Assembly: GCF_000800015.1 (NCBI RefSeq)
Contig: NZ_JUGR01000001.1
Span: forward strand, 1,364,001-1,428,000
Direction of reading: 5' to 3'
DNA from: Terriglobus sp. TAA 43
GTDB lineage: Bacteria > Acidobacteriota > Terriglobia > Terriglobales > Acidobacteriaceae
Length of the DNA stretch: 64,000 bases
Below are positions 16,553 through 19,078 of the stretch, piece by piece. The notes below the pieces were generated by a model, which worked only from the letters and a program-made list of their open reading frames with translations, was not told where the DNA came from and did not search any database. A program made the position numbers and the translations under genes. The stretch's first letter is position 1; each line of letters opens with the position of its first letter.

Positions 16553-16584
16553 CCGCCGCGGCAAACCACGCCGCGGCGGTTTTG
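16553..16584 (+). terminator. Terminator after pyrG
   Basis: CCGCCGCGG (16553-16561) and CCGCGGCGG (16571-16579) form a 9-bp GC stem with a 9-base loop followed by TTTTG. Confidence 0.85.
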
Positions 16585-16641
16585 CGTAGCGCAGAATCCT
16601 GCATCCTCCGCGCACGTTGTACGATCAAAAGAGAGATATAG

Positions 16642-17070
16642 ATGTTGAAGCTGAGCCAATCCGACTACGAAGCACTGCGCGCACATGGCGAAGAAACCTA
16701 TCCGCACGAATGTTGCGGCATTCTTCTGGGCCATGCGGGCGAGGTGAACCAGGTGGTCGAGATTATGCGTGCGGGCAATACGCGCACTGACTCCGCCCAC
16801 AACCGCTATCACATTGCACCGCAGGAACTTATCAAGGCGCAGCGTGAGGGGCGGAAGAAGGGACTGGATATCGTCGGCTTCTATCACTCGCACCCCGACC
16901 ATCCGGCGCAGTGGTCCGTTACGGACTTTGCCGAAGCCCACTGGTTCGGATGTAGCTACGTCATCACGGCCGTAGCGCAGGGCAAGGCCGAGGTGACGAA
17001 TGCATTCCTTCTGCGCGGCACCAGCGAAGAGGACAAGCAGTTTGAGGACGAAGAAGTCGTCGTCGGCTAG
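16642..17070 (+). CDS. JAMM/Mov34 metallopeptidase, Mec-like
   Basis: 142 residues, a single JAMM domain. The zinc site is complete: Glu23 in YPHECCGILLG, His82 and His84 in YHSHPDHP, Ser92 and Asp95 in the HxH-x7-S-x2-D pattern. Bacterial stand-alone JAMM proteins such as mycobacterial Mec remove amino acids or peptides from the C-terminal Gly-Gly of ubiquitin-like sulfur carriers. The next gene, 62 bases downstream, encodes exactly such a carrier (CysO-like) fused to its E1 enzyme, which supports this role. The gene lies after the pyrG terminator and probably heads a two-gene operon. Stand-alone cysM was not found nearby. Confidence 0.92.
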   Translation: MLKLSQSDYEALRAHGEETYPHECCGILLGHAGEVNQVVEIMRAGNTRTDSAHNRYHIAPQELIKAQREGRKKGLDIVGFYHSHPDHPAQWSVTDFAEAHWFGCSYVITAVAQGKAEVTNAFLLRGTSEEDKQFEDEEVVVG

Positions 17071-17132
17071 TTCACTTCACCCGGAACACCCCGCTGCATC
17101 CAACAGCATGCAGCCGTAATCCAAAGGAAGTT

Positions 17133-18626
17133 ATGACGATTCTGATTCCAACACCGCTGCGTGGATTTACGGACAACAAGTCCACCGTTGACGTAACCGC
17201 AGCCAATGTCAAAGAAGCTCTTGCCGCGCTGACTGAAGCGCATCCCGCTATTAAGGGCCACCTGTTCACCGCCGAAGGCAAGCTGCGCTCCTTCGTGAAC
17301 GTTTATGTGAACGACGACGACATCCGCGATCTGCCGGGCAAGGATGAGACGGCGTTGAATGCTGGCGACGAAATCTCCATCATTCCGTCCATCGCTGGCG
17401 GCGCACCCGCTATTGCGGAAGAAGCGATTGCAGAAGAATTGCCGACGCTGACCAACGAAGAGATTGCGCGTTACTCGCGCCACCTGATCCTGCCGGAAGT
17501 GGGCATGGACGGCCAGCGCAAACTGAAGGCCGCGAAGGTACTGTGCGTAGGCACGGGCGGCCTTGGCGCGCCACTGGCTCTGTATCTTGCAGCGGCGGGC
17601 GTGGGCACCATCGGCCTCGTTGATTTCGACGTAGTCGACGAGAGCAATCTCCAGCGCCAGATCATCCACTCGCAGTCCACCGTCGGTCAGCTGAAGGTAG
17701 ACAGCGCCGAACAGATGCTAAAGGGTTTGAACAAGAACATCAATGTTGTGAAGCACAACACGATGTTGACCTCTGCGAATGCTCTGGAGATCTTTAAGGA
17801 TTACGACGTCATTGCCGACGGCACGGACAACTTCCAGACGCGTTATCTGGTAAACGATGCCTGCGTTCTGACGGGCAAGCCCAATGCGTATGGCTCCATC
17901 TTCCGCTTTGAGGGACAGGCATCTGTCTTCGCCACGGAAGAAGGCCCCTGCTATCGCTGCCTGTACCCCGAACCGCCGCCGCCGGGACTGGTTCCCTCGT
18001 GCGCAGAAGGTGGCGTACTTGGCATCCTGCCGGGTCTTGTTGGCGTGATTCAGGCTACGGAAGTGATCAAGCTGATCCTTGGCATTGGCGAGCCGCTCAT
18101 TGGTCGCCTGCTGCTGGTGGATTCGCTGGGCATGACCTTCCGCACGCTGAAGCTGCGCAAGAACCCCAACTGCCCCGCTTGCGGAACGCACGAGATCAAA
18201 GAGCTGATTGATTACAACCAGTTCTGCGGTGTTGCAGCACCGGCAGAGGTTGGTCCGCTGGAAGTGGCATCGCATGGCGTGGTGACCGGCCTGGAAGACA
18301 AGGACGGCATTCCGCAGATCAGCGTGGAAGAGTTGAAGGCGAAGCGCGAAGAAGGCAAGGCGTTCATTCTGGACGTGCGTGAACCGCATGAAGCGCAGAT
18401 CGTCTCCATTGGCGCACCTATGATCCCGGTGGGTGAACTTGAAGCACGCGTGGGCGAGCTGGCCGCGTACAAGGACAAGGAAGTCCTCATTCACTGCAAG
18501 AGCGGTGCACGTTCGCAGAGAGCTTCGTTGATTCTGAAGAACGCGGGCTTCACCAACGTGAAGAACGTTGCAGGTGGCATTCTGGCATGGGCCGATCGCA
18601 TCGATCCGAGCCTGCCAAAGTACTAA
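17133..18626 (+). CDS. Fusion of CysO/MoaD-like ubiquitin-like domain, MoeB/ThiF E1 and rhodanese
   Basis: 497 residues in three domains. Residues 1-90 are a beta-grasp sulfur carrier resembling CysO (SFVNVYVNDDDIRDL) ending IIPSIAGG, with the Gly-Gly at 89-90 internal, followed by an Ala/Glu linker (91-105). Residues about 107-360 are an E1-like adenylyltransferase: RYSRHLILPEVG, GTGGLGAP (ATP site), NLQRQ, zinc cysteines C273/C276 and C347/C350, and C290 in PSCAEGGVLG. Residues about 395-497 are a rhodanese domain with active-site Cys455 in HCKSGARS. MoeZ-type E1-rhodanese proteins activate and sulfurylate CysO, ThiS or MoaD. Here the carrier must be released, or work in cis, before its Gly-Gly can be adenylated, and the adjacent JAMM peptidase is the obvious candidate. 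Likely pathways are CysO-dependent cysteine synthesis, molybdopterin or thiamine sulfur transfer. Confidence 0.93.
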   Translation: MTILIPTPLRGFTDNKSTVDVTAANVKEALAALTEAHPAIKGHLFTAEGKLRSFVNVYVNDDDIRDLPGKDETALNAGDEISIIPSIAGGAPAIAEEAIAEELPTLTNEEIARYSRHLILPEVGMDGQRKLKAAKVLCVGTGGLGAPLALYLAAAGVGTIGLVDFDVVDESNLQRQIIHSQSTVGQLKVDSAEQMLKGLNKNINVVKHNTMLTSANALEIFKDYDVIADGTDNFQTRYLVNDACVLTGKPNAYGSIFRFEGQASVFATEEGPCYRCLYPEPPPPGLVPSCAEGGVLGILPGLVGVIQATEVIKLILGIGEPLIGRLLLVDSLGMTFRTLKLRKNPNCPACGTHEIKELIDYNQFCGVAAPAEVGPLEVASHGVVTGLEDKDGIPQISVEELKAKREEGKAFILDVREPHEAQIVSIGAPMIPVGELEARVGELAAYKDKEVLIHCKSGARSQRASLILKNAGFTNVKNVAGGILAWADRIDPSLPKY

Positions 18627-18646: not shown

Positions 18647-18675
18647 AAAGGGCGTCCCTCGGGACGCCCCTTTTC
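18647..18675 (+). terminator. Terminator after the CysO-E1-rhodanese gene
   Basis: GGGCGTCCC (18650-18658) pairs with GGGACGCCC (18661-18669), flanked by AA on the left and CTTTTC on the right. It also lies just past the stop of the converging NTF2-like gene. Confidence 0.8.
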
Positions 18676-19078
18676 ATTTGCCTTCAGGGTCATGTGCGAA
18701 CGCGGCGGATGGCGCGGTGGGCACTCCGTCTTTGTGCCCCAGGCCCAGGGCAGCAATCCGTCCATCACGTATCGTGACGACGTGTACAAATTCACTATCC
18801 GATAGAAGATCACCCTGCGTGTTTCTGACGATCTGGTGCACCCGGACATGAACAGTGCCATCTTCCTGTTCGTTCATCTCAAGTGGCTCCACGGTGGGAT
18901 CGAAGTCTTGCCACTGTCGCTTCCAGTAGGCACGAATCTCGTCTTTGCCCACGGCAGTGCCGCCTTCCGAGGACTTAGGCCAGCGGACGTCAGGCGTCAT
19001 GAACTCCAGAACGCTATCCACGTCACGTCGATTAAACGCCGCGTAGGCCCGGCGAAGAGATTCGGTTGTCTCGGACAT
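18674..19078 (-). CDS. NTF2/SnoaL-like fold protein
   Basis: 134 residues. The N-terminus SLRRAYAAFNRRDVDSVLEFMTPDVRW and the later EIRAYWKRQW, HQIVRNTQGD and VVTIRDGRIAAL are typical of SnoaL-like cone-shaped proteins. The family includes isomerases, hydrolases and binding proteins, and no catalytic set is evident. It begins 3 bases after the stop of the exported NTF2-like gene, with GGAGGA inside the end of that gene, so the two are co-translated. Confidence 0.8.
   Translation of the reverse strand: MSETTESLRRAYAAFNRRDVDSVLEFMTPDVRWPKSSEGGTAVGKDEIRAYWKRQWQDFDPTVEPLEMNEQEDGTVHVRVHQIVRNTQGDLLSDSEFVHVVTIRDGRIAALGLGHKDGVPTAPSAAFAHDPEGK

What the first reader, a model, noticed from the sequence alone, without database searches (positions are those of the whole stretch)
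16642..18626. CysO-like ubiquitin-like domain fused to its E1 and a rhodanese, next to a JAMM peptidase
Seen: one 497-residue protein has a beta-grasp carrier ending SIAGG at residues 89-90, a linker, a complete MoeB/ThiF E1 and a rhodanese with an intact Cys455. The gene 62 bases upstream is a JAMM with all zinc ligands. Known: CysO, MoeZ and Mec(+) are separate proteins in mycobacteria, and CysO needs a free C-terminal Gly-Gly. Inference: the fused carrier is a precursor that the JAMM cuts after Gly-Gly, resembling ubiquitin precursor processing, or the E1 works on it in cis through a new mechanism. Fusions of E1 and carrier domains are known in outline; this three-domain form with adjacent JAMM deserves a check.
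Basis: partly seen in the sequence, partly recalled or inferred. Interest (0 to 1): 0.75.

Follow-up and report, generated by a model that had tools for sequence, protein, structure and literature searches.

The report
Sulfur carrier capped by its E1
A ubiquitin-like sulfur carrier is made joined to the enzyme that will load it with sulfur, next to a protease gene that very probably cuts the two apart; the arrangement is widespread and partly known, and in relatives short tails, some cysteine-rich, replace the fusion as the block on the carrier's end.

Summary
In detail: window 17133-18626 encodes one 497-residue protein (CysO-like carrier, Gly89-Gly90, linker, E1, rhodanese), with an intact JAMM gene 62 bases upstream. 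The precursor reading is well supported by comparison, untested biochemically. GG is invariant in 40 aligned fusions; the linker is unconserved and predicted disordered. Carrier and E1 switch repeatedly between fused and split, yet split carriers beside a JAMM rarely end in bare GG: they carry caps (C, TSC, WE, CCL). A JAMM was found in 44 of 45 fusion-type genomes searched. Of carriers not linked to this E1, 31 of 59 are capped in JAMM-bearing genomes, 1 of 28 in genomes without a canonical JAMM. So the JAMM is best read as a decapping protease for sulfur carriers, with the E1 as one kind of cap. The parts are known: MoaD-MoeB-rhodanese fusions with an Acidobacteria link, and JAMM release of capped or fused carriers, are in print; the 'new three-domain form' is not new, and cis activity has no support. 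New here: the decapping rule, fission and re-fusion, and cysteine-rich (TGT-codon) caps in Terriglobia plus cysteine-rich leader ORFs before the operon, which suggest cysteine attenuation.

The parts
16553..16589 (+). terminator-like hairpin between the CTP synthase gene and the JAMM gene
   Evidence: 10 G-C pairs, then TTTTGCGTAG; 5 sites found against 2.8 expected in shuffles, so a single site is weak evidence; CTP synthase by Pfam
16642..17070 (+). JAMM/Prok-JAB metalloprotease gene, 142 aa, E23, H82, H84, S92, D95
17133..18626 (+). fusion gene: CysO-like carrier + E1 + rhodanese, 497 aa
17133..17402 (+). beta-grasp (ThiS/MoaD/CysO-like) carrier domain, residues 1-90
   Evidence: Pfam ThiS 3-90; PDB sequence matches 4n6e_B and 3dwg_C (that 3dwg_C is CysO is recalled)
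17397..17402 (+). Gly89-Gly90; predicted cut after Gly90
   Evidence: invariant in 40 of 40 aligned fusions
17403..17444 (+). linker, residues 91-104, start of the cap
   Evidence: no conserved column, variable length; residues 87-100 pLDDT below 50
17472..18179 (+). MoeB/ThiF E1 domain, residues 114-349; C273, C276, C347, C350 (zinc) and C290
   Evidence: Pfam ThiF 1.8e-81; all five Cys invariant in 40 fusions; roles by analogy, recalled
18321..18593 (+). rhodanese domain, residues 397-487, Cys455 at 18495-18497
   Evidence: Pfam 7e-13; C455 invariant in 40 fusions
18650..18679 (+). terminator-like hairpin after the fusion gene

Best explanation
The fusion is a capped precursor. The JAMM hydrolyses the bond after Gly90 and so frees, from one chain, the sulfur carrier with an open Gly-Gly end and its own E1-rhodanese. 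The E1 then adenylates the carrier and the rhodanese Cys455 persulfide gives a thiocarboxylate, which a CysM-type enzyme most likely uses to make cysteine. The same JAMM would also open the other capped carriers of the cell (ThiS with an RG tail, MoaD fused to MoaE, a second CysO-like carrier with a CK tail beside a threonine-synthase-like gene). Shown: domains, motifs, gene order, conservation, association of caps with JAMM. Inferred: the cut itself, its site, the thiocarboxylate, and cysteine as product.
For: GG invariant, linker free, in 40 fusions; linker disordered in the model. Tree of 85 E1-rhodanese proteins: at least 9 changes between fused and split, and the window's fusion nests inside split relatives. 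Split carriers of the operon are capped. JAMM in 44 of 45 fusion-type genomes searched. Carriers not linked to this E1: 31 of 59 capped in 21 JAMM+ genomes, 1 of 28 in 15 genomes without canonical JAMM, that one in a genome with two divergent JAMM-like genes. Second sample of 80 named loci: 60 of 64 with a JAMM in view are fused or capped; of the 16 without, 9 of 10 capped or fused have a JAMM elsewhere in the genome and 2 of 6 bare GG have one (p 0.036). The own cysM-like gene (best model TIGR01138, below its cut-off) is 68-69% identical to the operon cysM of two relatives. Cysteine-rich leader ORFs before the operon cysM in 9 of 79 loci, 1 antisense, 0-3 in shuffles. Precedents: DR JAMM cuts MoaD-MoaE (PMC8832034, passages); capped PtmS2/PtmS3, QbsD (PMC6006322, passages).
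Against: No cut was shown. One fusion genome (G140; G264 is the same genome met again) shows no canonical JAMM; its assembly is fragmented and estimated 91-92% complete or so. The JAMM+ genomes were mostly picked for having the fusion, so their 21 capped E1-linked carriers are by design. With relatedness controlled only 3 independent contrasts exist; b follows a in 2 or 3 of them and never opposes, but the sign test is p 0.25 at best. Four loci keep a bare GG beside a JAMM (L240, L280, L287, L289), and 28 of 59 carriers in JAMM+ genomes are uncapped. cysM is not adjacent in the window, so cysteine as product is less direct here.
Confidence: 0.82

Rival explanations
1. Neutral ratchet (compatible with the cut, rival on purpose): once a JAMM is present, anything after Gly-Gly is tolerated, so stop codons drift, tails grow and genes fuse without benefit; the fusion has no function of its own and only makes the JAMM indispensable.
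For: Caps are very diverse (WE, VN, AW, GQ, SRS, TSC ...) and fused and split forms interchange; other carriers of JAMM+ genomes are capped too.
Confidence: 0.45
2. The fused carrier is activated in cis, uncut, by an unknown chemistry; the JAMM removes adducts instead.
For: Fusion keeps carrier and E1 at 1:1; Mec is known (recalled) to cut CysO-Cys.
Against: Linker unconserved, split relatives common and interleaved, no free carboxylate for adenylation (known chemistry).
Confidence: 0.05
3. Protein conjugation: the carrier is a SAMP/Urm1-like modifier and the JAMM a desampylase as well as, or instead of, a precursor protease.
For: Model hits include SAMP1 for the carrier (52.4, cut-off 60) and desampylase, the best hit of the JAMM (86.7, cut-off 130).
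Against: Both are below cut-off; relatives sit beside cysM.
Confidence: 0.12

Closest known systems
Mycobacterial CysO-CysM-Mec with MoeZ
   Same: carrier family, E1-rhodanese, JAMM; in many relatives also cysM in the same cluster
   Different: separate, uncapped CysO (recalled); here carrier and E1 are one chain and the cysM-like gene lies about 250 kb away
Capped sulfur carriers with JAMM protease (QbsE/QbsD, QbsE recalled; PtmS2/PtmS3 with PtmS1)
   Same: GG followed by a cap, including a single Cys; JAMM gene near the carrier (PMC6006322, passages)
MoaD-MoaE fusion cut by JAMM DR0402; MoaX of M. tuberculosis cut after Gly82 by an unidentified protease
   Same: internal GG, cut needed for activity (PMC8832034, PMC4326299, passages)
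   Different: fusion partner there is the sulfur-accepting subunit, not the activating enzyme
MoaD-MoeBR fusions (mSystems 2024)
   Same: same three domains in one chain; authors note over 55% identity between archaeal and Acidobacteria proteins (PMC11237513, passage)
   Different: in the passage read, no JAMM, cap or split relatives are tied to this fusion
JAB, E1-rhodanese, ThiS/MoaD operons of Iyer 2006, rows 4b and 4c
   Same: gene set, one Acidobacteria entry; JAB proposed to free fused carriers (PMC1779556)
   Different: this fusion and the caps are not described in the section and passages read

Membership tests
CysO/CysM/Mec cysteine pathway | CysO-like carrier with Gly-Gly | tested here: met
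   (3dwg_C, 4n6e_B matches)
CysO/CysM/Mec cysteine pathway | dedicated cysM in the same gene cluster | tested here: not met
   upstream gene is CTP synthase; cysM-like gene at G000:C1:1631410. In many relatives it is adjacent
CysO/CysM/Mec cysteine pathway | E1 is a MoeZ equivalog | tested here: not met
   PRK07878 492.2 bits, cut-off 647
CysO/CysM/Mec cysteine pathway | thiocarboxylate used to make cysteine | not testable with these tools
   needs biochemistry
Capped carrier plus JAMM protease | residues after Gly-Gly and a JAMM with intact motif | tested here: met
Capped carrier plus JAMM protease | JAMM removes the cap | not testable with these tools
   only association
MoaD-MoeBR fusion family | carrier, E1, rhodanese in one chain | tested here: met
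   PMC11237513 passage. The published sequences were not compared
SAMP/desampylase modifier system | members pass the family cut-offs | tested here: not met
   SAMP1 52.4 of 60, desampylase 86.7 of 130
E1-E2-JAB (6A-6E, Bil) conjugation systems | E2 domain in the cluster | tested here: inconclusive
   no E2 family among the Pfam hits or the NCBIfam hits shown for the two proteins (25 of 33 NCBIfam hits shown); further neighbours were not scanned for E2
Cysteine-responsive leader attenuator (in relatives, not in the window) | cysteine-rich short ORF followed by a terminator before a cysteine gene | tested here: inconclusive
   leader ORFs enriched; strong hairpins in three stretches picked by eye (z -4.9, -7.0, -4.9), but a simple terminator scan with short loops found none after 12 leaders and no shared structure stands at the caps

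The most novel reading that the evidence does not exclude
In Terriglobia the cap is a cysteine sensor. Where carrier and E1 genes are split, the carrier's C-terminal tail is a cysteine-codon leader peptide for the downstream E1 gene: ribosomes slow on its rare TGT codons when cysteine is short and so raise E1 expression, and the JAMM then trims the sensor off the finished carrier. One gene would thus encode a sulfur carrier and its own attenuator; the window's lineage lost this when it re-fused carrier and E1.
Probability: 0.25. Interest if true: 0.78.

Novelty: new variant of a known kind. Interest (0 to 1): 0.52.

Why it matters
Lone bacterial JAMM proteases have few known substrates (recalled). 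The rule found here, that carriers carry residues after Gly-Gly almost only where a JAMM exists, gives a sequence-only way to predict their substrates genome by genome and to test it with two purified proteins. It also resembles ubiquitin, which is made as fusions that a protease must open. If cysteine-codon caps prove regulatory, a protein tail that is cut off after translation would double as a nutrient sensor.

Tried and rejected
Mobile repeat as source of the Cys caps: two cap DNA motifs were searched in 8 and 6 genomes. The first, with up to 3 mismatches, occurs once in each of the four genomes that have it as a cap, at a place that fits the carrier locus, and once at 3 mismatches in G036, so it is not a repeat. 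The second is at the carrier locus without mismatch in three genomes; other places have 2 mismatches, at the level of the reversed-pattern control. RNA hairpin at the cap or stop codon as source of the TGT bias: median local z near 0 over 34 Cys-capped entries (a few loci entered twice), though L008 and L010 reach -3; over the whole gap the medians are -1.0 (34) against +0.35 (12 others); rejected as a shared feature. Loss of methionine enzymes as reason for the threonine-synthase-like/carrier pair: two strong Cys/Met PLP enzymes are present. Phylogenetic contrast test: only 3 usable pairs from 33 of 36 genomes, inconclusive. The listing for QbsE (20 of 111 papers) did not show the primary paper.

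Full report
What is there. The window holds a pair of genes: a 142-residue JAMM (16642-17070) and a 497-residue fusion (17133-18626), 62 bases apart. The fusion is carrier (ThiS family, residues 3-90), linker, E1 (114-349) and rhodanese (397-487). The JAMM has the H-S-H-x7-S-x2-D pattern (pattern as printed in PMC8832034). Relatives with solved structures include Uba4, MoeB and ThiF for the E1; 4n6e_B (ThiS/MoaD family) and 3dwg_C for the carrier (that the latter is CysO is recalled); and 2kcq for the JAMM. Terminator-like hairpins flank the pair; the gene before it is a CTP synthase.

The rest of the genome. Four ThiS-family carriers are found and none ends in a bare Gly-Gly: ThiS ends GGG-RG, MoaD is fused to MoaE (Pfam 8.7e-40), a second CysO-like carrier ends GG-CK, and the fourth is the fusion. 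One Prok-JAB match is found. The CK carrier lies directly behind a threonine-synthase-like gene (TIGR00260, 276 bits, cut-off 167). Eight PALP-family genes are present; one is cysM-like and 68-69% identical to the operon cysM of G202 and G139. It lies about 250 kb from the fusion.

How common. In 247 genomes of the phylum, 52 give one match from carrier to rhodanese, one of them (G237) broken by a TGA; I counted the rows by eye and the list was cut at weak matches. I read 60 further stretches. The usual order where the carrier is present is cysM-like, JAMM, carrier, E1-rhodanese, with the carrier fused or separate. In 80 named loci, the best 80 of at least 585 matches, 29 are fused, 41 capped, 10 bare; fusions occur in records titled Gemmatimonadota or Gemmatimonadetes, Caldithrix and Bacteroidetes as well as Acidobacteria. 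So the architecture is widespread.

Conservation. In 40 aligned fusions (the window's and 39 picked from 68 reading frames found, some of them duplicates) Ala88-Gly89-Gly90, the E1 cysteines 273, 276, 290, 347, 350 and rhodanese Cys455 are invariant, whereas the linker has no column marked conserved and varies in length. AlphaFold gives a model with mean pLDDT 83.1 and pTM 0.67; residues 87-100 lie below 50, as do 285-288 and 371-385. That fits an exposed cut site; the model was not used to judge domain packing.

Fusion and fission. On a quick tree of 85 E1-rhodanese proteins, fused and split states need at least 9 changes among carrier-linked rows; many forks are weakly supported and some rows are long. 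The fusion of the window and two genomes of its genus is nested among split relatives of the family; a fourth genome of the genus, G241, is split, and G202 is a second separate fusion. Split carriers are not free: in this family's 19 split loci every one has a tail after Gly-Gly. Three loci with an unlike carrier ending in bare GG (L072, L085, L087) were set aside as another family (weaker hits) and counted as 'none'; L072 is next to its E1.

Caps and JAMM. Of 45 fusion-type genomes searched (G237 and the rhodanese-less G221 among them), 44 have a canonical JAMM (E below 1e-12); the miss, G140, is a fragmented assembly. Nine further fusion genomes of two genera were not searched. Of 24 genomes picked because their best E1 match was not carrier-fused, 9 have one, of which G245 is of another type, fused to an E1-like part; this is not a matched control. 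In 36 genomes I examined 111 carrier hits (107 of 114 rows and 4; 7 weak or truncated rows were not fetched); 3 were dropped for lacking GG or being cut. Of carriers not linked to this E1, 31 of 59 are capped in 21 JAMM+ genomes and 1 of 28 in the 15 others; all 21 E1-linked carriers are capped, which is mostly by choice of genomes. Caps include fusions to MoaE and ThiG. The one exception, G026, has two divergent JAMM-like genes. Fisher p is 3e-6 per carrier and 1.3e-4 per genome, but genomes are related and only 3 independent contrasts exist. In the named sample 60 of 64 loci with a JAMM in view are fused or capped; of the 16 without, capped or fused carriers have a JAMM elsewhere in 9 of 10 genomes and bare ones in 2 of 6; the miss is G140 met again. 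In G009 a second JAMM lies beside a MoaD-MoaE fusion.

Cysteine caps. In the window's family 18 of 19 split carriers have cysteine in the cap. Over the 59 distinct non-empty tails before an E1, 28 hold Cys, 60 of 383 residues are Cys, and the codons are 51 TGT to 9 TGC, against 16 to 63 in 20 window genes (the control is one genome only). Cys caps go with long gaps before the E1 gene (32 and 30 entries, p 7e-8), partly a lineage effect. Two loci whose cap lacks Cys have instead a separate short ORF there, MKPTVTDRCCMCCPSCR and MKPAIPGRPRRCCPSCC. Cysteine-rich short ORFs in the 2.6 kb before 154 E1 domains: 15 sense, 3 antisense, 2-7 in ten shuffles; with a stricter rule 10, 3 and 0-3. Before the operon cysM they occur in 9 of 79 loci, 1 antisense, 0-3 in shuffles. 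Three stretches after such ORFs, picked by eye, fold into strong hairpins, but a simple terminator scan limited to short loops found none after 12 leaders. Polycysteine attenuators are known in mycobacteria (review passage, PMC9031893). No shared RNA structure was found at the caps themselves. The stretch around the window pair shows no such leader (L001).

Mechanism. Known chemistry requires a free C-terminal glycine carboxylate for E1 adenylation (recalled; also argued for MoaX in PMC4326299, passages). With the comparative data, the simplest account is cleavage by the JAMM after Gly90, then activation in trans or within the freed complex. The company of cysM and cysteine-rich leaders in relatives points to cysteine as product, but this step is inference, weaker in the window where cysM is elsewhere.

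Novelty. The three-domain fusion is in print (PMC11237513, passage). JAMM release of fused carriers was proposed in 2006 (PMC1779556, section 12 and passages) and shown for MoaD-MoaE (through PMC8832034, passages). Capped carriers with MV or C are described (PMC6006322, passages). The listings of searches did not show a paper that ties the E1 fusion to a JAMM-opened cap, a JAMM-presence rule, or a Cys-codon cap; the library lacks most subscription journals.

Noticed in passing
G000:C1:1170807-1172148 (-), L004/L040/L213: Threonine-synthase-like gene followed at once by a CysO-like carrier ending GG-CK. The pair recurs in G202 and in Verrucomicrobia, Kiritimatiellae and Aquificaceae records (TIGR00260 above cut-off in L188, L271, L293, L291), some with bare GG; a sulfur-carrier-fed PALP enzyme other than CysM is possible.
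   Followed up: partly
L062, L060, L281, L290, L225, L218 upstream of the operon cysM: Cysteine-rich leader-like ORFs, such as MNKSCFCFCCCVCCACCWGRDR and LLACACCCACYGCMCC, with strong hairpins after three of them (L062, L060, L281): possible cysteine attenuators.
   Followed up: partly
L252 and L223, between carrier and E1: Two related free leader-like ORFs ending CCPSC plus one residue in loci whose carrier cap has no cysteine.
   Followed up: partly
L097 (G221): Carrier-E1 fusion without rhodanese in a cluster with two PALP genes and a second carrier ending in bare GG; the genome's JAMM sits elsewhere beside a carrier ending GG-L.
   Followed up: no
L145:331-1761 (-) (G015): Same three domains in another order: carrier, rhodanese, E1.
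   Followed up: partly
window 17093-17114: Inverted repeat GCTGCAT...ATGCAGC in the gap between JAMM and fusion gene.
   Followed up: no
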